This document shows, one piece after another, positions 8,876 through 28,791 of a DNA stretch of 40,593 nt (position 1 is the stretch's first letter; each line of letters begins with the position of its first letter). The notes beneath the pieces were generated by a model that searched no databases, had not been told where the DNA came from, and was given only the letters and a program-made list of their open reading frames with translations. This DNA is from Gammaproteobacteria bacterium (lineage in GTDB: Bacteria; Pseudomonadota; Gammaproteobacteria; Pseudomonadales; Azotimanducaceae), in the NCBI GenBank assembly GCA_026706385.1, contig JAPOYV010000002.1:1-40593 (forward strand), given 5' to 3'. The position numbers and the translations under genes are program-made.

Positions 8876-11077
8876 TCATCCGCTCGCGCGCGCCTTGGCT
8901 TCCCGGCGCCGGGCGTGCAGTACCGGCTCGGTGTAACCGTTGGGCTGCGTCAATCCCTTGAACACCAGGTCGCATGCCGCCTGGAAGGCGACGCTGTCCT
9001 CGAAGTCCGGCGCCATGTCGAGGTAGTTCTCGTCGTCCGCGTTTTGCCGGTCCACCACCGCCGCCATGCGCTGCATGGTGTCACGCACCTGGTCCTCGCT
9101 GACGACGCCGTGATGCAACCAGTTGACGATATGCTGGCTGGAAATCCGGCAGGTCGCCCGGTCCTCCATCAGCCCCACGTCGTTGATGTCCGGCACCTTG
9201 GAGCAGCCGATGCCCTGGTCGATCCAGCGCACCACGTAGCCCAGGATGCCTTGGGCGTTGTTGGCCAGTTCGCGGCGGATGTCGTCGCCGGAGAGGTTCT
9301 CGCCCGCGAGCAGCGGGATCGTGAGGATGTCGTCCACGCTTGCCCGGGCCCGGCTCTTCAGGTCGTCCTGGCGGCTCGCGACGTCCACCTGGTGGTAGTG
9401 CAGCGCATGCAGCGTCGCCGCCGTCGGCGACGGCACCCAGGCACAGTCCGCGCCCGCGGTGGGGTGGTTGGACTTGACGTTGAACATCTCCAACATCTCG
9501 TCCGGCTTCGGCCACATGCCCTTGCCGATCTGGGCACGGCCCGGGAACCCGGTGGCGAGGCCCGCGTCCACGTTCGCATCCTCGTAGGCGAGGATCCAGG
9601 TCTCCTGCTTCATCGGCTCCTTGCGCACCATCGGGCCCGCGTGCATGGAGGTGTGGATCTCGTCGCCGGTGCGGTCGAGGAACCCCGTGTTGATGAAGAC
9701 GATGCGTTCGCGCGCGGCGCGGATGCATTCGCGGAGGTTGAGGCTGGTGCGGCGTTCCTCGTCCATGACGCCGACCTTCAAGGTGTTGCGGGCGAGTCCC
9801 AGGACGTCCTCGACGCGGTCGAAGAGTTCGCAGGTGAACGCCGTCTCCTCGGGCCCGTGCATCTTCGGCTTGACGATGTAGACGCTGCCCGCGCGGCTGT
9901 TGCGATAACGACCCCGGCCCTTCAAGTCATGAACTGCGCAGAGGCTCGTCACCACGGCATCGACGATGCCTTCGAAGACCTCGTCGCCGTTGGCGTCGAG
10001 CACCGCGTCGGTGGTCATCAGGTGCCCGACGTTGCGGATCAGGAGCAGGCTGCGCCCGGGCAGTGTCAGCGTTCCGCCATCCGGCGCGGTGAACGTGCGA
10101 TCGCCGACCAGCGTCCGATGCACCGTCTCGCCGCCTTTCTCGAAGGTCTCCGCGAGCTCGCCGGTCATCAGGCCCAGCCAGTTGCGGTACACGGCCGTCT
10201 TGTCCTCGGCATCCACCGCCGCGACGGAATCCTCGCAGTCCTGGATGGTGGTCACCGCCGATTCCAGCATGATGTCCTTGACGCCGGCCGGGTGAACGGC
10301 GCCCACGTCGTGGCCACGGTCGACCTGGATCTCGACATGCAGGCCGTTGTGGCGCAGCAGGACCGACGACGGCTCGTTCTCGGAACCGGCGAATCCGGCG
10401 AACTGCGCCGGGGTCGCGAGCGGCACCGCCCCCGCGGCGGTCACGGCTTCGAGCGTCCGGCTGTCCCCTTCACCGACGATGCGGTAGCTCGTCACGTCCG
10501 CATGGCTCGCGCCGCGCAGCGGCACCACACGGTCGAGTTCCTGCGCAGCGCGCTCGATCACCAGTTCGCCGCGGGCGGGGTTGTAGGACGTGCCCTTTTC
10601 GCGTCCGGGCGACTCGGGGATCAGGTCGGTACCGTAGAGGGCGTCGTAGAGGCTCCCCCAGCGCGCGTTGGCGGCGTTCAGAGCAAAACGGGCGTTCATG
10701 ACCGGCACCACCAACTGCGGTCCGGCCATGTGGGCGATCTCCGGATCGACGTTCGCGGTCGCGATCTCGAAGTCGCCGCCTTCGGGGACCAGGTAGCCGA
10801 TGTCCATCAGGAACGCCTTGTAGGCTTCGGGATCGTGCTGCTGGCCGCGACGATCGCGATGCCACGCATCGATGGCTGCCTGCAATTCATCGCGCTTGGC
10901 CAGCAGGGCGCGGTTGGTCGGCGTCAGGTCACGGACGATGGCGCTGAAACCGGTCCAGAAGTCGTCAGGCGAAACGTCCGTTCCGGGCAACGCCTCGTTG
11001 GCGATGAAGTCGTCGAGTTCCTTGGCGACCATCAGGCCAAAGCGGGACAGTCGTCCCGGTTCCGTTCTTGCGGTCAT
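8876..11077 (-). CDS. glcB: Malate synthase G
   Basis: The protein has 733 residues against 723 in E. coli. It condenses glyoxylate with acetyl-CoA to give malate and is cytoplasmic and Mg-dependent. Conserved stretches are readable throughout: [32 protein letters not shown]-like N-terminal blocks, [21 protein letters not shown] with [42 protein letters not shown] near the active site, and [10 protein letters not shown]. No isocitrate lyase is nearby, so the enzyme may serve glycolate or glyoxylate use rather than the full shunt. GGAGGGGGC directly precedes the ATG. Confidence 0.95.
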
Positions 11078-12135: not shown

Positions 12136-13140
12136 ATGACTACCGGTGAGTGCGGGAGATTTCGCGTAGCGAAATCTCCAAGCGACCGCGAAGCGGCCGC
12201 CTTCGTCTTCGACCCGGACAGTCCCCCGACGCCGGCGTGCCACGCGCCCACCATCGCGGCGTTGCCGGACCGGCTGGTCGCAGCCTGGTTCGCGGGCAGC
12301 CACGAGAAGAACCCGGATGTCGGCATCTGGTGCGCGATCAACCGGAACGACAGGTGGGAGACGCCGCGCCAAGTCGCCGACGGCTGGGGCGAGGCGTGCT
12401 GGAACCCCGTCCTGTGCAATACCGCGGCGGGCCTGCACCTGTTCTACAAGGTTGGCGTGTCGCCGGCGCGGTGGCGTGGCGCCGTGCTGACCTCCACGGA
12501 CGGTGGTGAGACGTGGCGCGACCGCGGAGAGCTCCCCGCACCCTGGCTCGGGCCAGTCAAGAACAAGCCGCTGGCACTGGCGAACGGCGATCTGTTGTGC
12601 CCGTCAAGCCGAGAGGCGGGCGGCTGGCGCTGCCACTTCGAGACCTTCTCGCCGGACCTGGAGAGGCTCGCCGAGTCCGCGGTCCCCGATCCCGGCGACC
12701 TCAAGGCGATCCAGCCCGCCGCCTACAAGCGCGGCGACACCTTCGAGGCCTTGGCGCGCACCAAGAGCGGCTGCATCGGCCTCACGAGGAGCCCGGACGG
12801 TCGCCGTTGGTCGGCCCTGGAAAGAACAGAGCTTCCCAACCCGAACTCGGGAATCGACGCGGTCAACCTGCCGGATGGACGCGCGCTGCTTGTCTACAAC
12901 CCCGCGACCACCCCCGAAGGCCGTTGGGGCGGCGCACGAACGCCGATCGCGCTCGCCCTTTCCGGCAACGATGGCGCATGGCGCGACGTCATGACTCTGG
13001 ACGACGACGCATCGGCACCCGACGGCGGTGCCCCGGAGTTCTCCTACCCGGCCGTGATCTGCGACGAAGCGATACACGTCGTCTACACGTGGCATCGGCG
13101 CACGATCAAGCACGTCCGGGTGACGGCTGACGAGCTTTGA
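12136..13140 (+). CDS. Sialidase-like (BNR) beta-propeller protein
   Basis: The protein has 334 residues. A canonical Asp box STDGGETW is at 120-127 and a weaker copy is in SPDGRRW. CHAPTIAALPDRLVAAWFAGSHEKNPDVGIW (35-65) and the C-terminal FSYPAVICDEAIHVVYTWHRRTIKH match the BNR_2 sialidase-family propeller. No signal peptide is visible, so it may be cytoplasmic and may not be a true sialidase. Residues 7-22 are encoded by a double-hairpin DNA element that interrupts the normal start; homologues would be expected to run almost straight from the start Met into FVFDPDSPPTP. No clear ribosome site precedes the ATG. Confidence 0.75.
   Translation: MTTGECGRFRVAKSPSDREAAAFVFDPDSPPTPACHAPTIAALPDRLVAAWFAGSHEKNPDVGIWCAINRNDRWETPRQVADGWGEACWNPVLCNTAAGLHLFYKVGVSPARWRGAVLTSTDGGETWRDRGELPAPWLGPVKNKPLALANGDLLCPSSREAGGWRCHFETFSPDLERLAESAVPDPGDLKAIQPAAYKRGDTFEALARTKSGCIGLTRSPDGRRWSALERTELPNPNSGIDAVNLPDGRALLVYNPATTPEGRWGGARTPIALALSGNDGAWRDVMTLDDDASAPDGGAPEFSYPAVICDEAIHVVYTWHRRTIKHVRVTADEL
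12155..12200 (+). repeat. Double-hairpin palindromic element inside a coding region
   Basis: A perfect 11-bp inverted repeat (12155-12165 and 12169-12179) with loop GTA is followed by a second hairpin (12182-12189 and 12193-12200, loop GAA) with one mismatch in an 8-bp stem. The element is open in the reading frame and is translated as GRFRVAKSPSDREAA. The arrangement recalls palindromic elements that settle inside genes, such as those of Rickettsia, or REP units. No second full copy is seen in this window. Confidence 0.7.
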
Positions 13141-13592: not shown

Positions 13593-13664
13593 CCACAACG
13601 CAACCCAACCTTGCGCGGTCGCTTTCGCGGGTCGCGCGCGTGTTCGTTCACTTGGAGATGGATC

Positions 13665-15833
13665 ATGAGACGCAAACAACTATCCCTGCTGGCAGCAGCA
13701 CCGTGGCTGGCGGCAGCCGCGCTCGCCGGCGAAACCGCTACGGAAGAAGAGCAGATAGAAGAGATCATCGTACTCGCACACCCGCTCGCCCGCGACGGAC
13801 TCGCCCAGCCCAGCGACGTGCTCGGAGCCGACGAACTCGAACGCAAGGCGGTGGACAACATCGGCGCGACAGTGGGCAACGAGCCGGGCATCCACAACAG
13901 TTCCTACGGCGTAGGTGCGGGGCGCCCGGTCATCCACGGCCTCGGCGGCGCGCGGGTGCGCGTCATGGAGGAACAGATCGACACGCTTGACGTCTCCGTC
14001 AGCAGCGGCGACCACGCCGTCACGGTCGACCCCTTCATCGCGGAGCGCGTGGAGGTTCTGAAGGGTTCAGCGACCCTGCTCTACGGCTCCGGCGCCATCG
14101 GCGGCGTTGTGGATGTCCATACGGGACGTATTCCGAACGAAGTGCCCGAGCGCATCCACGGCGCCATCGATCTGCGCGGCTCCGACAACGGCGACGGCCG
14201 GAACGGGTCCTTCCGGCTCGACGGCGGCGGCGGCAACGTGGCGTGGCACGTCGACGGCTTCACCCGCGAGGCGGACGACTACGACATCCCCGGATTCGCC
14301 GAGTCCGCGGCGCTGCACGCCTTGCACGAGTCGGAGGAAGAGGAAGAACACCACGACGAGGAAGGGCACGACGACCACGACCACGAGGAGGAGCACCACG
14401 ACGAGCACGAGGAGGAGGAGGCTTATGGAACCCTGCCCGGCAGCGGCCTCGAGGTCCGCGGCGGTTCCGCCGGCCTCTCCATCGTGGGCGAGCGCGGCTT
14501 CGTCGGTCTAGCCGTCAGCGGCCTCGACTCCGAGTACGGCATCCCGGGACACAGCCATGCCCATGAGCACGACGAACACGAGGAAGAGCACCACGACCAC
14601 GAGGAGCACCACGACGAACACGAGGAGGAGGAGGCGCACCACGACGAACATGAGGACGAGGCCCTTCCCGTCGTCGCCCTCGATCAGACGCGCATCGACC
14701 TGGAGGCTGGCCTGGCCGACCCGTTCGGCGGCTTCGAAGGCCTCAATCTCCGCCTAGGCATCAACGACTACGAACACGTGGAGAACGAAGCCGGCGAGGT
14801 GGGGACGGCCTTTGCGAACAGTGCCTGGGAAGCGCGTGCGGAGCTGACGCACGACCGCGGACCCGGCTGGCGCGGCGCCCTCGGCGCCCAGCTCGGCAAC
14901 CGCGAGTTCTCGGTGGTCGGCGAAGAAGCGTTCACGCCCCCTGTCGACACGTCGTCGTTCGGTCTGTTCTGGGTCGGCGAGCGCCCCTTGGGCGAACTCG
15001 GGCTCGAGGCCGGCGTGCGCTACGACCGGGTCGAGCACACGCCAGCGCACGGTCCGAGCCGCGATTTCAGCGGCGCAAGCGCGTCGCTAGGCCTCATCGT
15101 GCCGCTCGCCGAGGGTTGGGGGGCCACGTTGCTGGCCGACTACTCGTCACGTGCGCCCGTCGGCGAGGAACTCTTCTCCGAAAGCCCCCACCCCGGCACC
15201 GGCGTCTTCGAGATCGGCAATCCCGAGCTCGACCAGGAGCAGGCGCGCAACCTGGCGGCCACCCTCAACGGCGAAGGCGAGGGCTGGTCGGCGAAGGGCA
15301 CGTTCTACTACACGCACTTCCCCGACTTCATCTACCAGGCCGCGACGGGCGAGGAGCGGGAGGGGTTCGCTGTGCGCCGGTACTCCCAGGCCGACGCGAC
15401 GTTCCCCGGCTTCGAGGTGGAAGGCCGGGTGACCGTCGCCGAATGGGCCGCCGGAACGCTCCATCTCGGGGCATTCTTCGACATGGTATCGCCGCAACTC
15501 GACATATCAGGCAACGACAACCTGCCGCTCATTCCGCCCAACCGGACCGGCCTGTCCCTCGAGTTCACGAGCGACCGCCTGCGAGCCAACGTGGACTACG
15601 TACGGGCTTCCGAGCAGGACGACGTCGCCGAGTTCGAGTTGCCGTCGGACGGCTACGACGACCTCCGCGCGCGCATCGCCTGGCGTTTCCGCCCGGGCGA
15701 CACCATCGTCGATCTGTTCCTCGCCGGGCGCAACCTCACCGACGACGAGCAGCGGCTGCACACGTCCGTCGTCAAGGACTTAGCGCCGCAGCCGGGGCGC
15801 ACGATCGAAGCGGGGTTGCGCATGCGCTTCTAG
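13665..15833 (+). CDS. ZnuD-like TonB-dependent zinc receptor with two His/Glu-rich insertions
   Basis: The protein has 722 residues. A signal peptide ends at AAALAG, a TonB-box-like EEIIVLA follows, and then a plug domain with GAGRPVIHGLGGARVRVME and ERVEVLKGSATLLYGSGAIGG. The barrel ends in the outer-membrane signature RMRF. Residues 221-253 hold 9 His and 296-332 hold 14 His, set among Glu and Asp; both fall between barrel strands and should be surface loops. ZnuD of Neisseria has a shorter His-rich loop that captures zinc. The start at 13665 is supported by GGAG 8 bp upstream; an upstream in-frame ATG adds a poor leader. It probably shares the Zur-like operator with the small gene before it. 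Confidence 0.88.
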   Translation: MRRKQLSLLAAAPWLAAAALAGETATEEEQIEEIIVLAHPLARDGLAQPSDVLGADELERKAVDNIGATVGNEPGIHNSSYGVGAGRPVIHGLGGARVRVMEEQIDTLDVSVSSGDHAVTVDPFIAERVEVLKGSATLLYGSGAIGGVVDVHTGRIPNEVPERIHGAIDLRGSDNGDGRNGSFRLDGGGGNVAWHVDGFTREADDYDIPGFAESAALHALHESEEEEEHHDEEGHDDHDHEEEHHDEHEEEEAYGTLPGSGLEVRGGSAGLSIVGERGFVGLAVSGLDSEYGIPGHSHAHEHDEHEEEHHDHEEHHDEHEEEEAHHDEHEDEALPVVALDQTRIDLEAGLADPFGGFEGLNLRLGINDYEHVENEAGEVGTAFANSAWEARAELTHDRGPGWRGALGAQLGNREFSVVGEEAFTPPVDTSSFGLFWVGERPLGELGLEAGVRYDRVEHTPAHGPSRDFSGASASLGLIVPLAEGWGATLLADYSSRAPVGEELFSESPHPGTGVFEIGNPELDQEQARNLAATLNGEGEGWSAKGTFYYTHFPDFIYQAATGEEREGFAVRRYSQADATFPGFEVEGRVTVAEWAAGTLHLGAFFDMVSPQLDISGNDNLPLIPPNRTGLSLEFTSDRLRANVDYVRASEQDDVAEFELPSDGYDDLRARIAWRFRPGDTIVDLFLAGRNLTDDEQRLHTSVVKDLAPQPGRTIEAGLRMRF

Positions 15834-15896: not shown

Positions 15897-15940
15897 GCGA
15901 ACCGCTAGCGGTTCGCCTTGCTAGGGCGCCCCGCTAGCGG
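15897..15940. repeat. Paired CCGCTAGCGG palindromes
   Basis: Positions 15897-15916 are a perfect 20-bp palindrome centred on CTAG. The inner 10 bp, CCGCTAGCGG, recurs exactly at 15931-15940, and another GCTAG lies between at 15920. It follows the TonB receptor gene but has no U-tract, so it is not a standard terminator. A protein-binding site or a miniature palindromic element are both possible. Confidence 0.6.
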
Positions 15941-16164
15941 CACCTTGCGTGGCCCATTCGGGTGGGTCGACAATCGATCACCATCGCGGAAGCAATGGCA
16001 TGGTCGAACAAGCTGCCACAACCGTACACGGAGCAAACGCCAAAGGAAGCGTAGCGACCGGCGGCGGTTGTTCCATGGACGGTCGGCGTGGCCTTGGGCC
16101 GAAGGCGGAGCCGAGCGCAAGGGAGGTACCGGACCCGGGTTTGGGGCGCTTGGATCCCGTAGAG

Positions 16165-16443
16165 GTGAGCGAACGGGCCTTGGCACTGGCGAAAAAGTAC
16201 GTCTGGTGGCAAGGCCCGGAGCGCACGCTCGCCAAGCCGGCCAATCTCTTCGCCCAGATCATGACCTTGGGGACGGTCGAAGATGTCCGCTGGATGCTGA
16301 AGTGCGCATCCCGGGACGACCTGCGCGCCGTGTTGCGTGCCCCGCCGATCGGGACATTCAACGGTCGCTCGTGGACGTACTGGCACCGCTGGCTCGATCA
16401 AATGCCGGTTCCGCCCTTACCGACCAGGACACTGCCGCCATGA
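16165..16443 (+). CDS. Small partner (putative antitoxin) of an AbiEii-type nucleotidyltransferase
   Basis: From the GTG at 16165 the protein has 92 residues: KKYVWWQGPE near the start, then NLFAQIMTLGTVEDVRWM, LRAVLRAPPIGTFNGRSWTYWHRWL and a PVPPLP tail. Small proteins with this LIAQVM...SPRSWxYWH layout commonly precede AbiEii nucleotidyltransferases and are thought to be their antitoxins or partners; that is family knowledge, and the pairing here is seen directly. The stop overlaps the next ATG by 4 bases (ATGA), so the two are translationally coupled. The start is uncertain; an ATG at 16075 would add 30 poorly protein-like residues. Confidence 0.65.
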   Translation: MSERALALAKKYVWWQGPERTLAKPANLFAQIMTLGTVEDVRWMLKCASRDDLRAVLRAPPIGTFNGRSWTYWHRWLDQMPVPPLPTRTLPP

Positions 16444-17105
16444 TGACTCCGCGCCTGGACGTCCTTCCCCGCGCCCAGCAAGTGCTTTGGCCGTCTTTCG
16501 CGCAGCTGCCGAACGGGTTCGTCCTGTATGGGGGAACTGCCCTGGCCCTTCGTCTCGGCCACCGGGCGTCGGTGGATTTCGACTTCTCTTCGGCGAAACC
16601 GCTAGATGCGGACAGCTTGTTCGCCCTGCCTTTACTCCGCCGTGCCGAAACGCTACAGGCGGAACCGGACACTCTGACGGTCTCCGTGGTTCCTGGTGGC
16701 GCGGACCCCGTGAAGTTGTCCTTCTTCGGCGGAATCGACATCGGCCGCGTAGGCATTCCCGACCGCACGGACGACAACGTGATCTGGATCGCGTCGATGC
16801 TGGACCTCTTGGCCACGAAGCTCAAAGTGCTACTGCAACGCGTCTCGGCCCGTGACTACGTGGACATTGCCGCCATCTTGGAATCCGGAGTTTCCCTAGC
16901 CGACGGGCTTGGTGCCGCGGTAGCGCTGTACGGAGGCCAGTTTCCGCCCATGGAGGCGGTCAAGGCACTCGGCTATTTCGCGGAAGGCGACGCGGTCAAC
17001 GTTGAGGCATCGGTGCGCGACGTCCTGGTCCGCCACACGCAGGCTTGGGACCGCATAGTGCCGGCCATCTCGAAAGCCGACGGGGCAACGCTCGGCCCCG
17101 GCTAG
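16440..17105 (+). CDS. AbiEii/AbiGii-type nucleotidyltransferase toxin
   Basis: The protein has 221 residues. The nucleotidyltransferase signature is clear: YGGTALALRLGHR (30-42) followed by SVDFDFS with metal-binding Asp46 and Asp48. Downstream, LLATKLKVLLQRVSARDYVDIAAI is the conserved Lys/Arg-Asp-Tyr block of the family. AbiEii enzymes transfer nucleotides to RNA, including tRNA ends, and act as toxins in type IV toxin-antitoxin and abortive-infection systems. The usual AbiEi winged-helix antitoxin is not present; the overlapping small gene upstream takes its place. It is unlike its metabolic neighbours and may have arrived by transfer. Confidence 0.85.
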   Translation: MMTPRLDVLPRAQQVLWPSFAQLPNGFVLYGGTALALRLGHRASVDFDFSSAKPLDADSLFALPLLRRAETLQAEPDTLTVSVVPGGADPVKLSFFGGIDIGRVGIPDRTDDNVIWIASMLDLLATKLKVLLQRVSARDYVDIAAILESGVSLADGLGAAVALYGGQFPPMEAVKALGYFAEGDAVNVEASVRDVLVRHTQAWDRIVPAISKADGATLGPG

Positions 17106-17214: not shown

Positions 17215-17502
17215 CTACAAGTCCAGTTCCAACTCCGGCGTCAAGGATCCCGCGCAGCAGATCATCACCGCGCCCTTCTCCCGCTCTTCGTCGCTTAAGA
17301 CGAAGTCGCGGTGGTCAGGCTCGCCCGAGACGACCCGCTGCCAGCACGCGCCGCAGATGCCGACACCGCAAGCGAAGGGGATCTGCAGATCCTCGTCGAG
17401 GAGTGCGAAGAGGATCGAGCCGCCAGTGGGCACGAAAACCTCCTTGCCGGAACGCGCGAGCTTGACCGTGAAGCCGTCCGCCGGGGCAGCGGTGTCGCTC
17501 AT
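17215..17502 (-). CDS. 2Fe-2S ferredoxin, plant/vanillate-reductase type
   Basis: The 95-residue protein has the cluster pattern CGVGICGAC with Cys45, Cys50 and Cys53 and a fourth Cys at 82 or 83 in MICCAGS. This is the Cx4Cx2C...C pattern of [2Fe-2S] ferredoxin domains at the C-terminus of phthalate or vanillate oxygenase reductases. Here the domain stands alone, so a separate flavin reductase must feed it. Its start overlaps the stop of the epimerase-like gene by 4 bases, so the two form one operon. A partner oxygenase is not visible in the window; the PhyH enzyme nearby does not normally need a ferredoxin. Confidence 0.88.
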   Translation of the reverse strand: MSDTAAPADGFTVKLARSGKEVFVPTGGSILFALLDEDLQIPFACGVGICGACWQRVVSGEPDHRDFVLSDEEREKGAVMICCAGSLTPELELDL

Positions 17503-18578
17503 CTCAGCCTGGGCTCCACGAGGCCGAGGTCGATCATGGTCTCGCCGGTCGTGCGCAGGGTGTCCTCGATGGCGTGGGTTTCGAGACCGAGTTCGTCGCG
17601 CGCCTTGTCGCAGTGGGCGCGCGGCGCGTCGTACGGAGCACCGTACTTCTCGACCATGGCCTCGTACTCGGGCGTCACCCCGCCCACGTCGATGTGTGGA
17701 AACAGCGCTTTCAAGTGCTCATGCAGTTGCATCGCGGTGATCTCGCCCGAATCGTCGGTGGCGCAGAGCATGTAGCGCGAGCCGTTCTCGCAGACGTCGC
17801 TCTCGATCATAAGGGCTTGGGACTCGCCGCAGTCGCGGACGTCGACGATGTTCCACAACGCCTGCCAACCGCGCTGGCACGGGTGCCCGGCCAGCATGCG
17901 GCCGAGGAAGAACTGCCACGAGCCGCGCAGTTCATGCACTGGGCTCAGCAGCGGGCCCAGGACCACGCAGGGGCACACCGAGATCGCGTCGAAGCGACCG
18001 TCCTCGGCGGCCAGGCGGTTGACCAGGTGTTCGCACTCCACCTTCGCCATGGAGTAGCCGACCTCGCCCTTCTCCACGAGGTTCTCGGTATTCCAGTTCT
18101 TGTCGTCGCCGCGGTTGTCGGACGCCCAATCCGCTTCCGTGTAGCGATGGCCCGGCGGCGACGGGTGGCCGATGGCGGCGAAGGAACTGGTATAAACCAG
18201 GCGCTTCACCGTCCCCGAGTTCTTGACCGAGCGGACGATGTTGTGTACGCCGTTGATGGCGCCGTCATAGACCTGCTGCGGATTGTTGGCGCCGCCGTAG
18301 CCCATCGGCGTGCCGACGTGCAGCACGGCGCTACAGTCCTTGAAAACCGCGTCGTAGCTGCCGTCTTCGAGCAGGTTGGCCTCGTGCAGGGAGACCGTGC
18401 CGGGGTGCTCGTCGGCAAGCGCAAGCAGGAACCCGGTTTTGTCCGGGTTCGAGGTGTCGGTGACGCAGGCGCGCACGTCGTAGCCGCGTTTCATGAGGAC
18501 GATAACGGTGTGCGCGCCGATGTAGCCGGACGCGCCCGTGACGGCGACAGGCCCGTCGGCTGCGGTGACGGAGGGCAT
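17499..18578 (-). CDS. NAD(P)-dependent epimerase/reductase, dihydroflavonol-reductase-like
   Basis: This is a 359-residue extended SDR. The Rossmann loop GASGYIGAH is near residue 15; VYTSS with YSMAKVECEH gives the Ser and YxxxK catalytic motif. The substrate half ends in a long tail. It resembles the dihydroflavonol 4-reductase and cinnamoyl-CoA reductase branch, whose bacterial members reduce ketones or aldehydes of aromatic and aliphatic compounds. AAGGAG lies 10 bp before the ATG. It is divergent from the TPP-enzyme operon across a 137-bp gap, suggesting shared control. Confidence 0.85.
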   Translation of the reverse strand: MPSVTAADGPVAVTGASGYIGAHTVIVLMKRGYDVRACVTDTSNPDKTGFLLALADEHPGTVSLHEANLLEDGSYDAVFKDCSAVLHVGTPMGYGGANNPQQVYDGAINGVHNIVRSVKNSGTVKRLVYTSSFAAIGHPSPPGHRYTEADWASDNRGDDKNWNTENLVEKGEVGYSMAKVECEHLVNRLAAEDGRFDAISVCPCVVLGPLLSPVHELRGSWQFFLGRMLAGHPCQRGWQALWNIVDVRDCGESQALMIESDVCENGSRYMLCATDDSGEITAMQLHEHLKALFPHIDVGGVTPEYEAMVEKYGAPYDAPRAHCDKARDELGLETHAIEDTLRTTGETMIDLGLVEPRLR

Positions 18579-18715
18579 CGTGGATTAGCTCCTTGCCGAT
18601 ACGCGGATATGGCGAAGCCGGCAAGTGTATGGTCGGCGGCCCATTTGCGCCAATCGGCGTTTTCGCGCAGAGTGTCGCGTTTTCCCCCGCGCCCACAACA
18701 AGGAGAGCTCAAGCC

Positions 18716-20350
18716 GTGAAAGTCGCCGCCGGCATCGCCCATGCGATGAAGCAGGAAGGGATCGACACGATCTTCACCTACCCCGTCAACCCGATCATCG
18801 AGGCCGCCGCCGAGGCCGACATCCGCACCATAGTCGTGCGCCAGGAGCGCATCGGTCTGCACATGGCCGACGCCTACTCGCGCCTGTCGTCCGGCGAAAA
18901 GATCGGCGTCTTCACAATGCAGCACGGCCCGGGATCCGAGAACGCCTTTGGCGGCGTCGCGCAGGCCTATTCGGAGTCCGCGCCGATCCTCGTGCTGCCT
19001 GCGGGCTATCCGCGCCGGCTCGCACACTACTACCCGAACTTCAACTCCACCCTGAACATGCGCCACGTCACCAAGTGGGCGGAGCCGCTGACCATGGGCC
19101 GGGCGATCCCCGAAGTCATGCGCCGTGCCTTCTTCCAATTGCGCAACGGTCGGCCCGGACCGGTGCTGATCGAAGTCCCGGTGGACGTCTTCGGCGAGGA
19201 TGTCCCCGACGGTTGGGAACATACGCCGAGCTACGCGACACGCGTCGGGCCGGACCCCGACGACGTGGACCGCGCGGCGGTGGTCCTCGCCGGTGCCGAG
19301 CGGCCGGTGATCTACGCCGGACAAGGAGTCCACTACGCTAGAGCCTGGGACGAACTGAAGGCGCTCGCCGAGGAGTGGAACATCCCGGTCACCACGAGCC
19401 TCGAGGGCAAGAGCGCGTTCAACGAGACCCACCCGCTCTCGCTCGGCTCCGGTGGCCGCGCCAATCCACGCACCGTTAAGACCTTCCTCGACGAGGCGGA
19501 CGTGATCCTCGGCGTCGGCTGCAGCTTCGCGCTAACCGGCTTCGGCGTGCCCATGCCGCGCGGCAAGACCATCATCCACGCCACCCTTGATCCGATGGAC
19601 CTCAACAAGGACGTCGTGGCCCAGTACGCGGTGATCGGCGACGCCAAGTTGTCCTTGGCGGCGCTCAGCGCGTCCATGGCGGATCGCGACCACGCCCAGG
19701 CGGATGCCCGCCAAGGCGCTGTGCAGAAGCGCATTGCCAAGCAGAAGGCCGAGTGGCTCGCCGAGTGGGACGCCAAGCGCGGCAACAACTCGGCACCGAT
19801 CAATCCCTATCGCGTGCTCAACGAACTCAACCGGACGGTGGACATCGACAACACGGTCATCACCCACGATGCGGGCAGCCCGCGCGACCAGCTCTCGCCA
19901 TTCTGGACGTCGACCACGCCGCTGTCCTACATCGGCTGGGGCAAGACGACGCAGCTCGGCTACGGCTTGGGGTTGGCGATGGGCGCCAAGGTGGCGCATC
20001 CCGACAAGACCTGCATCAACGTCTGGGGCGATGCGGCGATCGGTTTCACCGGCATGGACTTCGAGACCGCGGTACGTGAACGGATACCGATCCTGTCGAT
20101 CCTGATGAACAACTTCTCCATGGCCATCGAGATCCCGATCATGCGGGTGGCCCAGGAGAAGTACGGATCCACCGACATCTCCGGGCACTACGCCGACATG
20201 GCCAAGGCCTTTGGCGGCTACGGCGAGCGGATCACCGACCCCGGCGACATCGCGAGCGCCATCGAGCGCGGCATCGCGGCGACCAAGGACGGCCAGCCTG
20301 CGCTTCTCGAATTCATCACCGACAAAGAGATCACGATCTCCAATGGCTGA
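18716..20350 (+). CDS. Thiamine pyrophosphate-dependent enzyme, acetolactate-synthase-like
   Basis: The protein has 544 residues in the usual three-domain order. The N-terminal Pyr domain has RQERIGLHMADAYSR with the activating Glu, then QHGPGSENAFGGVAQAY. The middle domain covers about 190-330. The C-terminal PP domain has the TPP motif as WGDAAIGFTGMDFETA ending in ILMNN. The first step is likely decarboxylation or carboligation of a 2-oxo acid; the exact reaction cannot be assigned. I start at the GTG at 18716 because AGGAGA lies upstream and the homology begins there. The stop overlaps the next start by 8 bp. Confidence 0.88.
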   Translation: MKVAAGIAHAMKQEGIDTIFTYPVNPIIEAAAEADIRTIVVRQERIGLHMADAYSRLSSGEKIGVFTMQHGPGSENAFGGVAQAYSESAPILVLPAGYPRRLAHYYPNFNSTLNMRHVTKWAEPLTMGRAIPEVMRRAFFQLRNGRPGPVLIEVPVDVFGEDVPDGWEHTPSYATRVGPDPDDVDRAAVVLAGAERPVIYAGQGVHYARAWDELKALAEEWNIPVTTSLEGKSAFNETHPLSLGSGGRANPRTVKTFLDEADVILGVGCSFALTGFGVPMPRGKTIIHATLDPMDLNKDVVAQYAVIGDAKLSLAALSASMADRDHAQADARQGAVQKRIAKQKAEWLAEWDAKRGNNSAPINPYRVLNELNRTVDIDNTVITHDAGSPRDQLSPFWTSTTPLSYIGWGKTTQLGYGLGLAMGAKVAHPDKTCINVWGDAAIGFTGMDFETAVRERIPILSILMNNFSMAIEIPIMRVAQEKYGSTDISGHYADMAKAFGGYGERITDPGDIASAIERGIAATKDGQPALLEFITDKEITISNG

Positions 20351-21959
20351 GCGCCCGCAGCTGCTCGACGATGAAGCCATGCAGGGCTTCATCCGCGAGG
20401 GCTACATCACGCTCTCCTCGGCGCTCCCGCACGACTACCACGATCGGATGTGGGCCGCCCTCGACGACCTCGAAGAGGGCGGTCCGCGCGGTCACAACAA
20501 CCTACTGCCGTGCGTGCCGGAACTGTCGCAGATGCTCGATGAGCCGATCGTTCGGGGCGCCTTGGAGTCGATCCTCGGGCCCGGCTATTACCTCCACTTC
20601 CACCGTCACGACCACTTCAACTTCTTGAACGCCGCGCAACCGCTGCACAAGGACGGCGACAACCACTCGCACTATGCGGTAGACGGGCTGCGGCGCATGC
20701 ACCGCACGCGGTTCGCCATGCTGTTCTACTACCCGCAGGACACGCCGCTCGAGAAGGGTCCAACGGGCATCGTGCCACGCAGCCACTACGTGCCCAGGCG
20801 AGCACTGGAAGCGGCACGGGCGCGCATGAACGAATTCAACAAGGCGCTGCGCCAGCAGGCCGTTGCGAAGTTCGGCGCGGACGTCCTCGGCAGCGAGCAG
20901 GCGCGGGCCTGGCACCGCCAGCAACTCGAGCAATACCGGGCCGACAATCCGGATCAGTTCACGGCCATGGCGGCGCTCGACGAACCGTGGGAAGCCGCCA
21001 AGATTCCGCTGCTCGGCGACGCCGGGACGGTCAACATCGTCCACTTCGACATGGTGCACGGACGGCACAGCGCCAACGTGACGGACTCATCCCGGCACAT
21101 GGTGAAGTTCCTGTTCACCCGCGACCGCGATCCGATCGGCGCGTCCTGGCGGCACGACGGTTCGGCATGGCCGGAGGACGACGACACGATGGCGCCTGTG
21201 TGGCGATCACTCTGGGACTGGCACCGCGGCGCGCGTCCAGGCCCGATGCCGCCCGAGGACTGGGAGCCCAGGCTCACGAGCGCCGACGACCACGTATCAC
21301 TCGGCGCCGCCTATTCGCTCGGCATGTCGGCGGCCCGCGGCGCGGACGGGCTCGGGCCGCTCATGGAGGCATTCCTCGGCGACGACGTGGGCTTGCGGAC
21401 GATGGCGGCCTACGGGTTGGTCGCCGCCGGAGGCGCTGCAGCGGAGAGCCTCCGCGAGACGCTTGAGTACGCCGACTCCGCGCTCAAGGTCCGCGTCCTG
21501 GACCTCCTCGGCGACATCGGCGCGCCTGCGTCGAACGCGTTGCCGCAGCTCTTTGAGGCAATCGGCGACGGTGATCCGAACGTACGTCGCTACGCGGTCG
21601 AAGCCGTGGGCACGGTGGCTCAGGGTCGGGAGATCGACGCCACGGTGCTGCGCGGCCCGCTCGCCGACGAGGATGCGTTGGTCCGTCGCAACGCCGCCAT
21701 GGCCGCGGCCCGCCTCGCGCCCGATCTTCGCGACGACGACGTACTTGTGCCCCTGCTGGCGGACAACCTGTACTTCTGGCACCACCATGTCCGCGGCTGG
21801 GCCATCGAGGCGCTGCAACGGTTGAACGCGCCCGCCGCGACGCACGCCGCGTTGCGCTACCTGATGACCGCACGCTGGGACCACACCCCGAAGTCCGGCG
21901 ACACGCCACCCGGAGCGCGGGCGCCAAGACGCGTGGTCGCGAAAGCCAGCGCAGCATGA
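20343..21959 (+). CDS. Phytanoyl-CoA dioxygenase-family protein fused to HEAT-like repeats
   Basis: The protein has 538 residues. Residues 1-260 are a PhyH domain of the Fe(II)/2-oxoglutarate dioxygenases: the HxD of the iron site is H102-K-D104, the distal His is probably H239 in DMVHGRHS, and Arg251 would bind 2-oxoglutarate. A linker follows, then about 315-515 holds alpha-helical repeats with the HEAT pattern, for example LKVRVLDLLGDIGAPA and PNVRRYAVEAVGTVA. The enzyme probably hydroxylates a small molecule; the HEAT part may bind a partner or a large substrate. It overlaps the TPP gene by 8 bp and the next gene by 4 bp. Confidence 0.85.
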   Translation: MAERPQLLDDEAMQGFIREGYITLSSALPHDYHDRMWAALDDLEEGGPRGHNNLLPCVPELSQMLDEPIVRGALESILGPGYYLHFHRHDHFNFLNAAQPLHKDGDNHSHYAVDGLRRMHRTRFAMLFYYPQDTPLEKGPTGIVPRSHYVPRRALEAARARMNEFNKALRQQAVAKFGADVLGSEQARAWHRQQLEQYRADNPDQFTAMAALDEPWEAAKIPLLGDAGTVNIVHFDMVHGRHSANVTDSSRHMVKFLFTRDRDPIGASWRHDGSAWPEDDDTMAPVWRSLWDWHRGARPGPMPPEDWEPRLTSADDHVSLGAAYSLGMSAARGADGLGPLMEAFLGDDVGLRTMAAYGLVAAGGAAAESLRETLEYADSALKVRVLDLLGDIGAPASNALPQLFEAIGDGDPNVRRYAVEAVGTVAQGREIDATVLRGPLADEDALVRRNAAMAAARLAPDLRDDDVLVPLLADNLYFWHHHVRGWAIEALQRLNAPAATHAALRYLMTARWDHTPKSGDTPPGARAPRRVVAKASAA

Positions 21960-22891
21960 AGCTCGGCATCAGCCACCAGCGGCCGGCCGACTTCTCCGAC
22001 GCGCGGTTCCGGTACCTGCGCACGATGGGCGTCGAGACCATGGAGGTACGGCTCGAGAGCGAGGAGGCGACCTTCGAACATCTGCGTGACATCCGCGACC
22101 GGGTGACGAGCGCGGGTTTCGAATTGCACGAGATCATGCTGGACGACCTCTACTCCGCAGCGGCTTTCACGCTCGGACTGCCGGAACGCGACCCGGTCAT
22201 CGACCGCCTATGCGCGTTCATCCGCGACCTCGGCCAGCTCGGAATCCGCTACACGACCTACGCCTGGCACACCGGCGGCGCCTACCAGACCGGCACGACC
22301 GTGTCGCGGGGTGCCGAGACGCGGCTCTTTCGCAATGCCGATGCGCAAGCCCTCCCCGCTGCGTTTGCGAGCACATACGACGACGACGCGATGTGGGCGA
22401 ACTACCGCTATTTCATGGACCGCGTCCTGCCGGTCGCGCAGGAGGCGGGCGTGCACCTGCAACTGCACCCGAACGACCCGCCGGTGAACCACCAAGGCGT
22501 GGCGCGGATCTTCCGGAGCACGGATGCGTTCCGCGAGGCCATGGACATCGCCGGCGGCGATACCCATGCCGGCATCCTGTTCTGCGTGGGAACGTGGTCG
22601 GAGATGCCAGGCGCCAACGGTCGCGGCGAGGACATCGTTGCGGCCATCCGCGAGTTCGGGGCGAGCGGGCACATCCACCAGGTCCACTTCCGCAACACCT
22701 CGGCGCCACTGCCGGACTTCCACGAGACGTTTCCGGACAACGGTTACGTCGACCTCGTGGCTGTCATGCGCGCGCTCGCCGAAGTGGGTTTCGACGGCAT
22801 CGTGGTGCCAGACCATGTGCCGGGCGACGGTCGGGTCGAGGAGGCCTACACCTTCGGGTACATCCGGGCGCTGATCCAGGCGGTAGGCTAG
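21956..22891 (+). CDS. Mannonate dehydratase/sugar isomerase-like TIM barrel
   Basis: The protein has 311 residues against about 394 in E. coli UxuA. LHPNDPP (170-176) matches the UxuA metal-loop LHPDDPP, Cys210 sits in GILFCVGTWSE where UxuA has GITFCTGS, and IHQVHFRN plus PDHVPGDG complete the His/Cys/His/Asp metal set. It may dehydrate or isomerise a sugar acid, but it is shorter than UxuA and lies without uronate genes, so the substrate could differ. Its ATG overlaps the PhyH stop by 4 bases. It ends on the convergent rimJ gene, sharing 4 bp. Confidence 0.8.
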   Translation: MKLGISHQRPADFSDARFRYLRTMGVETMEVRLESEEATFEHLRDIRDRVTSAGFELHEIMLDDLYSAAAFTLGLPERDPVIDRLCAFIRDLGQLGIRYTTYAWHTGGAYQTGTTVSRGAETRLFRNADAQALPAAFASTYDDDAMWANYRYFMDRVLPVAQEAGVHLQLHPNDPPVNHQGVARIFRSTDAFREAMDIAGGDTHAGILFCVGTWSEMPGANGRGEDIVAAIREFGASGHIHQVHFRNTSAPLPDFHETFPDNGYVDLVAVMRALAEVGFDGIVVPDHVPGDGRVEEAYTFGYIRALIQAVG

Positions 22892-26230: not shown

Positions 26231-28738
26231 CTAGGGCGACTGGCGCAGCCGGACCGCCAGTGTGTCCAGCACCTCGGCGAGGCGGGCGTACCCCATCGCC
26301 GCCGCGCCTGCCACGGCGGCGTCGTCCGTTCGTATCGATCCCGCCAGGGACTCGAGCTGCGTGGCCAACGCTTGGTCGGTTGCGCCCTGCCCCAGCGCCG
26401 CAGCCGCGAGATCCAGCACCGCGTCGAGGTCCGCACCAGCCTCCGCCGACAGCGAACCACGGCGCTGCAGTTGATCCCGGTATGCGCGGGCGACGACCGG
26501 CTCGGCAGGCCAGCGGAACATCCTTTGCTGTTGGGGATTGAACGTATCACCCTGGCTGGCGAGAGCAGCCGCGCCGATCTCGCTTTCCGACAGGTACTCG
26601 CTCGGCAGCAGCGCCAGTACGTCCAAGCCGCGGATGATCTCGGTCGCATAGATCCGGCCCCCGTACCAGTACGCGGACCAGTATCCGCCTAGCACCGCCT
26701 TTTCGGCGTCGATGGGGCCTCGGTCGAAGTAAGCGATCTCCACCGGATTAAGCGAGTCCGTGAAGTCGACCACCGAGATTCCCCCTTGGTACCAGGCTTG
26801 GACGAGGATGTCTCGGCCTGGCACTGGGACGACCGAACCGTTGTGCGCGACGCAGTTCTCCTCCTCCGTCTGGGGCGCTGGAATCTTGAAATAGCTCCTG
26901 AACTCCAGTCGATCGCCGACGATGTCGTAGATCGCGTCCGCGCCCCAGTCGAGGGGATCGAAGGCACGGCAGCGTGGCATCATGCCGCCGCCCCACTCGT
27001 CGGCGAAAACGAGCTTGGTGCCGTCGTTGTTGAACGTCGCCGAATGCCAGTAGGCGAAACCCTTGTCGACCACCGCGTCGATTCGGCGCGGCTCGAGGGG
27101 GTCGGAGATGTCGAACAGGATGCCGTTGCCGGAACAGGCACCCGCCGCAAGACGCTTTTCCGGGAAGACCGTGATGTCGTGGCACTGGTCGGTGGCGGGG
27201 GATTCCTGCGTCCCGTCGCCATGGTCGCCGCCCCGCCAGAGCCCCGCCAGGACGCCGTCGTCAGGATCAGCGAACACGGCGGGGCTGTGCACGACGCGCG
27301 CGCCGGCCGGATCGTCCACGGGAATCTCGACCACGTCGATACGGAATAGCGCCGTGCGGTGGTCGCCCGGCAGTTCATCGATGCAGCCAGCCAGTTCGTC
27401 CTCGTCGCGGACGCGCGACGTGCCCGAGTTGTAGACGACAATCCTCTCGTCGTCGGCTGTCACGACGGAATGGGTGTGCGAGCCGCGGCAGGTCTGCACC
27501 GCACCCACCTGCACCGGTCGGCGCAAGTCGCCGATGTCGAATATGCGCAGTCCGCGGAACCGGTCGGCGCTCACGTCCTCGGCGACCCCCTCGAGGCCGC
27601 AGTCGAGCCGGCCCCGGGTCTCTTCAACCGACATGATCAGGAGGTCGTCGACAACCGAGATGTCGCCCTGCCCGCCCGGACAGACCACCGAACTGAGCTG
27701 CACGGGGAGGCTGTCGTCGACCAGCCGATAGACGTTGAAGCCGTGGTAGCTACCGGCGAAAAGGATATCGCCCCTGAAGGCCATGTCGGTATTGGCGAAA
27801 CGCAGCAGCGGTGCGCGGCGCCACTCGTCGTCGGCCTCCTCGCTTTCGTTGCCGGCATCCGCGTCGTCAGCGGCGGCATCGTCGTCCGTCGCCTCGCCGC
27901 CACCCGCCGGTACTTCGTGCCGGGCGGTTTCTCCGTCGGGAGCGTCCTCGCCGTCTTCGTCCAGGTCGGGGCGGTCCGGCGGCAGGTCGGCCGGATTCGC
28001 CGGGTCGAAAAAGCCCGGCGGCCTCGGTAGCGAGGCCACGAGTTCCAGGTTCATCCGCGCCTGGCCGGCGTCCTCGAATCCGGCTTCGAGACCGGCACGC
28101 GGATCGTCCGACAGCGTGATCAGCAGGGCGTGCATGCGCTCGATTTCGGCGGTCTGATCGTTGGTCACGTCCGTCGTGAATTCGAACAAGACCGGGTCGT
28201 ACGCGGAACCCGGGCGCTCGAGCAGTTCCTCGACCATCGCCACCGCACCTTCGTGGTGAGCGATCATCAGACGCAGGAAGAGCCGGTCGAAGTCTGTCCC
28301 CTCCGACGAGGCCAGTTCAGCCATCTCCTCCGCAGTCGCCATGCCGGCCATGCGGTGGTCGGTGTGCATCCCGGCATGGTCCGACGGATCCGGGACGTCT
28401 TCTCCGCGTTCGCTGAGCCATGCGCCCATGAACTCGATCTCGTCCCGCTGCGCGAGGTCGATGCGACCGGCCGCATCCGAGACCTCGGACCGGTTCGTAC
28501 GCTCCGCAGCCAACTCGGCCATCTGGACGGCCTGGTGGTGGTGCGGAATCATGTCCTGCATGAACCGGACATCGTCCGGCGAATAGCTGGAGTCGGCGAC
28601 CTTGACAGCCTCTTCGGGGCTGAGCGTCCGCGCCGGGGCACCGGGTGCGCCCGGCTGGACGATGGGTGCGGGGTCGGCAAGAACCGCCCCGGACATCAAA
28701 GCCGCGCCTACGATGCCGCAGGCAAGTCTGTGCTTCAT
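26231..28738 (-). CDS. Secreted DUF305 domain fused to an LVIVD-type propeller
   Basis: The protein has 835 residues. A signal peptide (1-21) is followed by a DUF305 ferritin-like helical domain with RFMQDMIPHHHQAVQMAELA (59-78) and LMIAHHEGAVAM (158-169), whose His/Met pairs suggest metal binding. Met/His-rich HAGMHTDHRMAGM lies between them. A very acidic linker (about 253-307) leads to repeats such as RGLRIFDIGDLRRPVQVG, GILFDISDPLEPRR and GGISVVDFTDSLNPVEIA, the LVIVD propeller pattern, then a helical C-terminus. It probably acts in the periplasm or outside the cell. Similar two-part proteins exist in environmental bacteria, but no role has been shown to my knowledge. Confidence 0.82.
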   Translation of the reverse strand: MKHRLACGIVGAALMSGAVLADPAPIVQPGAPGAPARTLSPEEAVKVADSSYSPDDVRFMQDMIPHHHQAVQMAELAAERTNRSEVSDAAGRIDLAQRDEIEFMGAWLSERGEDVPDPSDHAGMHTDHRMAGMATAEEMAELASSEGTDFDRLFLRLMIAHHEGAVAMVEELLERPGSAYDPVLFEFTTDVTNDQTAEIERMHALLITLSDDPRAGLEAGFEDAGQARMNLELVASLPRPPGFFDPANPADLPPDRPDLDEDGEDAPDGETARHEVPAGGGEATDDDAAADDADAGNESEEADDEWRRAPLLRFANTDMAFRGDILFAGSYHGFNVYRLVDDSLPVQLSSVVCPGGQGDISVVDDLLIMSVEETRGRLDCGLEGVAEDVSADRFRGLRIFDIGDLRRPVQVGAVQTCRGSHTHSVVTADDERIVVYNSGTSRVRDEDELAGCIDELPGDHRTALFRIDVVEIPVDDPAGARVVHSPAVFADPDDGVLAGLWRGGDHGDGTQESPATDQCHDITVFPEKRLAAGACSGNGILFDISDPLEPRRIDAVVDKGFAYWHSATFNNDGTKLVFADEWGGGMMPRCRAFDPLDWGADAIYDIVGDRLEFRSYFKIPAPQTEEENCVAHNGSVVPVPGRDILVQAWYQGGISVVDFTDSLNPVEIAYFDRGPIDAEKAVLGGYWSAYWYGGRIYATEIIRGLDVLALLPSEYLSESEIGAAALASQGDTFNPQQQRMFRWPAEPVVARAYRDQLQRRGSLSAEAGADLDAVLDLAAAALGQGATDQALATQLESLAGSIRTDDAAVAGAAAMGYARLAEVLDTLAVRLRQSP

Positions 28739-28791
28739 CGGATACCAGCGCGGCAAGGGTTGGGCAACACAGCCTGGTGCCGATCCCAATT

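What the first reader, a model, noticed from the sequence alone, without database searches (positions are those of the whole stretch)
18579..22891. Tightly overlapped TPP enzyme, PhyH-HEAT and UxuA-like operon, divergent from an epimerase-ferredoxin pair
Seen: three plus-strand genes overlap by 8 and 4 bases, and two minus-strand genes overlap by 4 bases across a 137-bp shared gap. The combination of a 2-oxo-acid TPP enzyme, an Fe/2OG dioxygenase, a mannonate-dehydratase-like TIM barrel, an extended SDR and a lone [2Fe-2S] ferredoxin matches no pathway I know. Inference: a catabolic or biosynthetic route in which an oxidised C-chain or sugar-acid intermediate is hydroxylated, cleaved and reduced.
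Basis: partly seen in the sequence, partly recalled or inferred. Interest (0 to 1): 0.8.

Follow-up and report, generated by a model that had tools for sequence, protein, structure and literature searches.

The report
Conserved triad, probably sugar-acid catabolism
Three of the five genes form a real operon that is kept in related uncultured gammaproteobacteria and probably breaks down an unusual sugar acid with the help of oxygen, while the other two genes are only neighbours; what the operon consumes is not yet known.

Summary
The five genes are real and placed as described, but they are not one unit. The plus-strand triad (TPP enzyme, PhyH-HEAT oxygenase, UxuA-like TIM barrel) keeps its order in 10 distinct assemblies, window included, from at least two genera; PhyH-HEAT and UxuA-like overlap by the same 4 bases in 10 of 10. 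In 100 genomes of the family these two co-occur far above expectation (16 and 16, 12 shared; 7 of 7 UxuA genera). The TPP enzyme is common (48 of 100), shows no co-occurrence excess, and looks recruited. The epimerase-ferredoxin pair lies beside the triad only in the window and its nearest relative.

Catalytic residues are kept. UxuA-like matches mannonate dehydratase best in sequence and fold but fails the curated cut-offs. Five of 13 fetched PhyH-HEAT contexts outside triads hold sugar genes (7 were not scanned); UxuA relatives lie beside aldonate dehydratase, aldolase, lactonase and other PhyH genes.

Best reading: oxygen-dependent catabolism of a modified sugar acid. The oxygenase acts on the sugar part, UxuA-like dehydrates an aldonate to a 2-keto-3-deoxy acid, and the TPP enzyme decarboxylates it. 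Substrate and step order are inferred. New variant of a known kind; moderate interest.

The parts
18716..20350 (+). ThDP-dependent enzyme, NCBIfam NF004807 (PRK06154), 544 aa; probable 2-oxo-acid decarboxylase
   Evidence: 831 bits against cut-off 607; three TPP domains; RQE at 42 and GDA...NN motif at 438; plasmid homologues lie beside hydroxy-acid oxidases or dehydrogenases in 5 of 9 fetched contexts
20343..21959 (+). PhyH-type Fe(II)/2-oxoglutarate oxygenase fused to C-terminal HEAT repeats, 538 aa
   Evidence: H102, D104, H239, R251 invariant in 27; mean pLDDT 86.8; Foldseek: HEAT-repeat proteins and Fe/2OG oxygenases
21956..22891 (+). UxuA-like (mannonate dehydratase superfamily) TIM barrel, 311 aa; probable aldonate dehydratase
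   Evidence: H171, C210, H244, D286, H287 invariant in 22; best fold match 1tz9, TMq 0.78
20343..20350 (+). 8-base overlap of TPP and PhyH-HEAT genes; among the 10 triads only in window and L009
21956..21959 (+). 4-base ATGA overlap of PhyH-HEAT and UxuA-like genes, kept in 10 of 10 triads and in the G243 pair
18579..18715 (.). shared upstream gap of the divergent genes, with a ribosome-binding-like AAGGAGAG before the TPP gene
   Evidence: no promoter-like site found
17499..18578 (-). extended SDR, dihydroflavonol-4-reductase-like; neighbour, not part of the conserved unit
17215..17502 (-). [2Fe-2S] ferredoxin, best NCBIfam match to the C-terminal part of the glycine betaine monooxygenase reductase (46.9 bits, cut-off 500); paired with the SDR
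   Evidence: pair also in L158 and L159, away from the triad

Best explanation
The triad is a small operon for oxygen-dependent catabolism of a modified sugar acid. PhyH-HEAT hydroxylates (or oxidatively unmasks) the sugar or sugar acid with iron, O2 and 2-oxoglutarate; its HEAT repeats probably serve for protein contacts. The UxuA-like enzyme removes water from the resulting aldonate, giving a 2-keto-3-deoxy acid. The TPP enzyme decarboxylates that 2-oxo acid to an aldehyde one carbon shorter, which general dehydrogenases finish. Shown: gene order, conservation, coupling of PhyH-HEAT and UxuA-like, catalytic residues, predicted folds, carbohydrate-type neighbours in part of the relatives. Inferred: the substrate, the order of steps, that the TPP enzyme decarboxylates rather than ligates, and any role of HEAT.
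For: Triad order in 10 assemblies. PhyH-HEAT and UxuA-like share 12 genomes where 2.6 are expected, and 7 of 7 UxuA genera. Each pair is adjacent somewhere: TPP-UxuA without PhyH in G265, TPP-PhyH without UxuA in G262, PhyH-UxuA at a contig edge in G243. UxuA-like keeps the presumed metal-site residues and best matches mannonate dehydratase; of 6 fetched plasmid contexts of distant homologues, 3 hold alpha-glucuronidase or GH115 genes and one an HpcH-type aldolase; an HpcH/HpaI aldolase also lies beside it in L144. PhyH-HEAT outside triads lies beside xylulokinase plus an N-acetylneuraminate-lyase-like aldolase (L139), GH127 plus a D-threonate-kinase-like gene (L138), pfkB kinases (L140, L024), and near a class II aldolase and Gfo/Idh (L142). 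Another assembly of TPP enzyme, PhyH-like gene and UxuA-like, with a galactonate dehydratase above its cut-off, occurs in L145. The TPP family sits next to hydroxy-acid oxidases or dehydrogenases in 5 of 9 fetched plasmid contexts, the logic of a 2-oxo-acid decarboxylase. The ketoacid decarboxylase KivD acts on 2-keto-3-deoxy-arabonate (PMC10644656, abstract and headings seen).
Against: The TPP enzyme does not co-occur with the pair above chance (in 8 of 16 PhyH-HEAT and 6 of 16 UxuA genomes, against 48 of 100 overall), and 20 fetched TPP contexts from genomes without the pair share no neighbour in more than 4. UxuA-like fails the curated mannonate dehydratase cut-offs. Of 13 fetched non-triad PhyH-HEAT contexts, 5 have sugar genes by Pfam, 1 scanned has none (L020: cytochrome c and gamma-glutamyltranspeptidase), and 7 were not scanned; I scanned those that looked sugar-like, so the fraction is biased. 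UxuA contexts L136 and L171 show no such genes by reading. The triad itself holds no kinase, aldolase, lactonase or transporter. PhyH-HEAT paralogues in the window's genome lie in other settings.
Confidence: 0.42

Rival explanations
1. The functional unit is only the PhyH-HEAT/UxuA-like pair; the TPP gene is a stand-alone enzyme next to which the pair landed and whose transcription it uses.
For: TPP orthologue in 48 of 100 family genomes regardless of the pair, no co-occurrence excess; unrelated genes stand between TPP and PhyH-HEAT in L010, L014, L017 and L018; contexts of the TPP gene vary.
Against: TPP is upstream of the pair in two genera (g1, g125) and, in G265, directly beside UxuA-like while PhyH-HEAT is elsewhere; a different TPP enzyme is near UxuA-like in L145 and L173.
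Confidence: 0.3
2. A bacterial alpha-oxidation route: PhyH 2-hydroxylates an acyl-CoA and the TPP enzyme is a 2-hydroxyacyl-CoA lyase.
For: The reaction pair is known from peroxisomes (recalled); proteins named 2-hydroxyacyl-CoA lyase are among the PDB matches at 133-159 bits.
Against: The TPP enzyme belongs to another curated family (831 bits), and acetolactate synthases (up to 162 bits) and glyoxylate carboligases (up to 158 bits) score as high as the lyases. No acyl-CoA ligase in the triad. UxuA-like has no place in the route. Several PhyH-HEAT relatives lie with carbohydrate genes.
Confidence: 0.07
3. Five-gene pathway, with SDR and ferredoxin as reductase and electron carrier for the same substrate.
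For: Divergent arrangement in window and L009; SDR of at least 65% identity occurs in 9 of 100 genomes, 8 of which have PhyH-HEAT where 1.4 are expected.
Against: In the 8 other family genomes with this SDR it lies on another contig than the triad or its pieces, or the genome has no triad; Fe/2OG oxygenases need no ferredoxin (established knowledge); the ferredoxin resembles Rieske-oxygenase reductase domains.
Confidence: 0.1
4. A carboligation route: the TPP enzyme joins a short 2-oxo acid (glyoxylate or pyruvate) to an aldehyde and UxuA-like isomerises the product, as in glyoxylate carboligase plus hydroxypyruvate isomerase, or a ring-cleavage logic as in IolD/IolE.
For: The same fold classes are paired in those pathways (recalled); glyoxylate carboligase is among the matches.
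Against: UxuA-like is nearest to mannonate dehydratase in sequence and fold; isomerases and epimerases come after it in the fold list.
Confidence: 0.11

Closest known systems
D-mannonate dehydratase UxuA/ManD (hexuronate pathway)
   Same: Pfam PF03786, best solved-structure match by sequence and by fold, presumed metal-site residues kept
   Different: 311 aa instead of 367-414 in the PDB chains, below both curated cut-offs, no uronate genes in the triad; close relatives seen only in the window's own family among the genomes sampled
PRK06154/NF004807 'thiamine pyrophosphate-requiring protein'
   Same: Member by curated score; 52-65% identity to alphaproteobacterial, Thermomicrobium and haloarchaeal plasmid proteins, about 42% to Rhizobium ones
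   Different: In 9 fetched plasmid contexts none holds PhyH-HEAT or UxuA by annotation; 5 hold a neighbouring hydroxy-acid oxidase or dehydrogenase; function of the family not established in what I saw
PhyH family oxygenases (EctD, KanJ, HygX, SnoK, SptF)
   Same: Fe/2OG residues and predicted fold
   Different: C-terminal HEAT repeats and long helices at 153-219; Pfam PhyH score below gathering
Non-phosphorylative sugar-acid route with ketoacid decarboxylase (engineered butanetriol route)
   Same: Decarboxylation of a 2-keto-3-deoxy acid by a ketoacid decarboxylase (PMC10644656, abstract and headings)
   Different: Engineered in E. coli with KivD; no Fe/2OG oxygenase step in what I saw

Membership tests
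NF004807 / PRK06154 TPP family | Curated score cut-off 607 bits over full length | tested here: met
   831 bits, residues 1-543 to profile 20-562 of 565
UxuA mannonate dehydratase | NCBIfam cut-offs (NF003027 191, TIGR00695 199.55) | tested here: not met
   96.9 and 58.8 bits
UxuA mannonate dehydratase | Metal-binding His, Cys, His, Asp set and TIM barrel fold (residue roles recalled from ManD structures) | tested here: met
   H171, C210, H244, D286 invariant in 22; 1tz9 TMq 0.78 on a model of mean pLDDT 74.3
UxuA mannonate dehydratase | Acts on D-mannonate | not testable with these tools
   needs an enzyme assay
PhyH (PF05721) | Gathering score 22 | tested here: not met
   20.0 bits, E 9.1e-4
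PhyH-type Fe/2OG oxygenases | HxD...H iron triad and 2-oxoglutarate Arg (roles recalled) | tested here: met
   H102, D104, H239, R251 invariant in 27; motifs read
PhyH-type Fe/2OG oxygenases | Double-stranded beta-helix fold | tested here: met
   Foldseek matches to SptF, HygX, SnoK, EctD, KanJ at E 2e-6 to 9e-6; TM by query about 0.3 and by target about 0.5-0.6, since the rest of the chain is HEAT and inserts
Peroxisomal-type alpha-oxidation | TPP enzyme is a 2-hydroxyacyl-CoA lyase | tested here: inconclusive
   Best family is another; PDB lyases score no better than other TPP enzymes; CoA-site residues not compared
Five-gene unit of the finding | The five genes kept together in other genomes | tested here: not met
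   Only in L009, the nearest relative

The most novel reading that the evidence does not exclude
A new oxygen-dependent sugar-acid catabolic pathway in uncultured, probably host-associated gammaproteobacteria, in which a HEAT-bearing Fe/2OG oxygenase first oxidises a blocked (for example methylated or deoxy) sugar acid, an unassigned branch of the mannonate dehydratase superfamily dehydrates it, and a TPP enzyme of unknown function decarboxylates the 2-keto-3-deoxy product; the same three reaction types were put together at least twice from different TPP and PhyH branches (triad type and L145 type).
Probability: 0.25. Interest if true: 0.68.

Novelty: new variant of a known kind. Interest (0 to 1): 0.45.

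Why it matters
PhyH oxygenases of unknown role are strikingly abundant in some sponge symbionts (reported for Poribacteria, PMC3909097, passages seen). If PhyH-HEAT enzymes act on sugars or sugar acids, this operon gives part of that family a concrete, testable role and a substrate class. It would also give a function to the widespread TPP family NF004807, which is named only by its cofactor. That the window's relatives come from sponges is my recall of the isolate codes, not a tool result.

Tried and rejected
Five-gene unit: rejected, the SDR-ferredoxin pair lies apart from the triad in the other genomes looked at. Alpha-oxidation: considered because PhyH plus a TPP lyase is the textbook pair; disfavoured by family scores and neighbours. 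Mandelate-like route: the hydroxy-acid oxidases beside TPP homologues fit but nothing aromatic accompanies the triad. Co-occurrence of the TPP enzyme with the pair: tested and absent, which lowers the claim that it is obligatory. The pdb_via fold library was not available, so folds rest on Foldseek. Literature: five searches aimed at this gene set or its setting listed 7, 2, 15 of 47, 5 and 3 papers, none of which describes it by title and abstract start; of these only passages of PMC3909097 were opened. The library holds open-licence papers only, so that is weak evidence of novelty. Searches were about single enzymes. The promoter and terminator scan gave nothing. The UxuA model is moderate (mean pLDDT 74.3; 106-140, 174-185, 220-222 and 248-263 below 50), so its active-site loops were not interpreted. 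The output was cut in the middle; part of the missing loci was printed again, and L141 was seen only in part.
Full report
What is there. The five are under purifying selection against the nearest relative, L009 (dN/dS 0.036, 0.084, 0.018, 0.240 and 0.117 in the order ferredoxin, SDR, TPP, PhyH-HEAT, UxuA-like). The C-terminal 238 residues of PhyH-HEAT change faster (77% identity) than the first 300 (92%).

Families. The TPP enzyme is a clear member of NF004807/PRK06154 (831 bits, cut-off 607). PhyH-HEAT has HEAT repeats above threshold and a PhyH match just under it (20.0 against 22), but H102, D104, H239 and R251, which I take as the iron and 2-oxoglutarate residues (roles recalled), are invariant in 27 sequences. 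Its AlphaFold2 model (mean pLDDT 86.8) matches artificial HEAT-repeat proteins with one part and Fe/2OG oxygenases such as SptF, HygX, SnoK, EctD and KanJ with another. UxuA-like scores 121.8 bits on PF03786, below the curated mannonate dehydratase cut-offs. Its three PDB matches by sequence are mannonate dehydratases, and the same proteins lead the fold list (1tz9, TMq 0.78). H171, C210, H244, D286 and H287 are invariant in 22 sequences. The SDR is nearest to dihydroflavonol-4-reductases, the ferredoxin to the C-terminal part of the glycine betaine monooxygenase reductase (46.9 bits, far below that family's cut-off).

Is it a unit? One scan of the genome-contig collection with PhyH-HEAT gave 28 loci. 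Orthologous TPP genes (82-99% identity) lie in 10 of these 28 and UxuA-like in 8 of 28; L010 and L011 end just behind PhyH-HEAT. Together with G221 (L134) and the window there are 10 distinct triads: window, L009, L012, L013, L014, L016, L017, L019, L025, L134 (PhyH-HEAT is split into two frames in L019). The genus is given by the tool for window, L016 (G281) and L017 (G247), all g1, and for L134 (G221), g125; the others fall with these in the trees or by identity. The PhyH-HEAT/UxuA overlap is 4 bases in 10 of 10 and in the G243 pair at a contig edge; the TPP to PhyH-HEAT distance ranges from -8 to 1283 bases. In L010, L014, L017 and L018 unrelated genes stand between TPP and PhyH-HEAT. L018 and G262 have TPP and PhyH-HEAT but no UxuA-like gene behind them.

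Co-occurrence. In 100 genomes of the window's family (the same 100, window's genome included, in each search), PhyH-HEAT (E <= 1e-60) is in 16, UxuA-like (E <= 1e-40) in 16, both in 12, where 2.6 are expected (hypergeometric 2.6e-9). By genus it is 7 of 7 UxuA genera within 8 PhyH-HEAT genera of 37 (7.8e-7). These tests do not correct for relatedness beyond genus. The TPP orthologue (70% identity or more, partial genes included) is in 48 of 100 and shows no excess with either (8 of 16 and 6 of 16). Twenty TPP contexts from genomes without the pair share no neighbour in more than four. So the pair is the tight core and the TPP enzyme a frequent partner. In genomes that have the pair but no TPP orthologue (G210, G234, G076, G249, G283) the two genes are not adjacent, which is against an obligatory pair. 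Trees put the operon copies of UxuA-like in two groups, the larger holding also a non-operon clade (L049, L169, L170), and those of PhyH-HEAT in two groups, the larger holding also L015 and L130, which stand alone. The smaller PhyH-HEAT group is sister (100/99) to a clade of L023, L022/L139, L138, L024 and L140, four of which lie beside sugar genes.

The SDR-ferredoxin pair. SDR homologues of 65% or more are in 9 of 100 genomes. In the eight other than the window's, the SDR lies on a different contig from the triad or its pieces, or the genome has no triad. A ferredoxin match lies beside the SDR in L009, L158 and L159 and in none of the other SDR loci searched (L160-L166, L049). Eight of the nine genomes have PhyH-HEAT (1.4 expected, 5.7e-7), so a shared lifestyle or metabolism is possible, but there is no linkage.

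Spread of the UxuA-like branch. At E <= 1e-60 only the window's genome was found among 369 genomes drawn from the class and 398 from the phylum; these draws need not contain other members of the family. At E <= 1e-15, 2 of 194 genomes of the order match, both in the window's family. More distant homologues are in 192 plasmid records; the 20 listed have 32-37% identity, and 100 of the 192 belong to the rhizobial and haloarchaeal genera named in the tally.

What the neighbours say. TPP homologues are in 38 of 72,556 plasmid records (9 contexts fetched). They lie beside an alpha-hydroxy-acid oxidase in three (L040, L041, L042), beside a D-2-hydroxyacid dehydrogenase in two (L045, L047), between two TauD dioxygenases in one (L044), and without such partners in three (L043, L046, L048). 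That is the pattern of 2-oxo-acid decarboxylases. Six distant UxuA-like contexts were fetched: alpha-glucuronidase or GH115 genes in L055, L057 and L060; an aldolase/citrate-lyase-type and a mandelate-racemase-type gene in L056; Gfo/Idh and a lactonase in L059; a second mannonate dehydratase and a distant alpha-L-fucosidase in L058. Within the family, UxuA-like genes outside triads lie beside an HpcH/HpaI aldolase (L144), near a galactonate dehydratase above its cut-off (336.6 against 311) with an aldo-keto reductase, an ectoine-hydroxylase-like PhyH gene and another TPP enzyme (L145), and among a lactonase, aldo-keto reductase, 2-hydroxyacid dehydrogenase, Gfo/Idh, 3-keto-disaccharide hydrolase, MFS carrier, PhyH and TauD (L143). 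L141 has two PhyH genes within 5 kb. L136 and L171 show no such genes by reading.

PhyH-HEAT outside triads. Of 13 fetched contexts of close homologues (45% identity or more; L015, L020-L024, L026-L028, L130, L138, L140, L142), five carry sugar genes by Pfam: xylulokinase (533 bits, cut-off 380) with a 4-base overlap to PhyH-HEAT and an N-acetylneuraminate-lyase-like aldolase (L022/L139), GH127 and a D-threonate-kinase-like protein (L138), pfkB kinases (L140, L024), class II aldolase and Gfo/Idh (L142). One scanned context (L020) does not. Seven were not scanned, and the choice was not blind.

Mechanism. The simplest route that uses all three enzymes is: oxygenase step on a sugar or sugar acid, dehydration of an aldonate to a 2-keto-3-deoxy acid, decarboxylation to an aldehyde one carbon shorter. 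That a ketoacid decarboxylase can use such an acid is reported for KivD and 2-keto-3-deoxy-arabonate (PMC10644656, abstract and section headings seen). Which sugar acid, which position is oxidised and whether the oxygenase acts first are not shown.

Novelty. Five paper searches aimed at this gene set or its setting showed no account of it in the titles and abstract starts listed; only open-licence papers are held. PhyH abundance in Poribacteria is in print (PMC3909097, passages). The parts are known kinds of enzyme; the combination and the PhyH-HEAT architecture in a sugar-acid setting look new. I file it as a new variant of a known kind, interest 0.45. Sponge origin of the relatives is recalled from isolate codes, not tested.

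Noticed in passing
L145:6-7134 and L173:461-6605: Another assembly in a different genus: TPP enzyme (in L145 nearest PRK07064, 459.7 bits, below its cut-off of 495), aldo-keto reductase, galactonate dehydratase, ectoine-hydroxylase-like PhyH gene and UxuA-like; L173 looks alike by reading, and its UxuA-like frame carries a stop.
   Followed up: partly
G000 contigs C77, C19, C90, C131 (L051-L054): Four further PhyH-HEAT-like genes in the window's own genome; by reading, one has a TonB-receptor-like and a GH3-like gene within 5 kb (L051), one lies beside aminomethyltransferase-like genes (L054).
   Followed up: partly
L014:8821-9930, L017:4783-5892, L010:7913-9950, L018:7412-8401: Unrelated genes of at least two kinds (an ATPase-like gene in two loci) stand between TPP and PhyH-HEAT, while the PhyH/UxuA junction is never split in the loci seen.
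   Followed up: no
window 12136-13140: BNR-repeat (sialidase-like) protein next to a TonB receptor at 13611-15833, about 4 kb from the finding; would fit carbohydrate use, not tested.
   Followed up: no
window 15918-17105: AbiEii-type nucleotidyltransferase match (58.5 bits) next to the ferredoxin gene.
   Followed up: no
window 8876-11077 and 26231-28789: Malate synthase and a DUF305 protein.
   Followed up: no
window 20343-21959, residues 83-91 of the protein: A conserved YLHFHRHDH-like stretch ahead of the iron site in PhyH-HEAT (H87 invariant, H85 and H91 at 90% or more of 27); role unknown.
   Followed up: no
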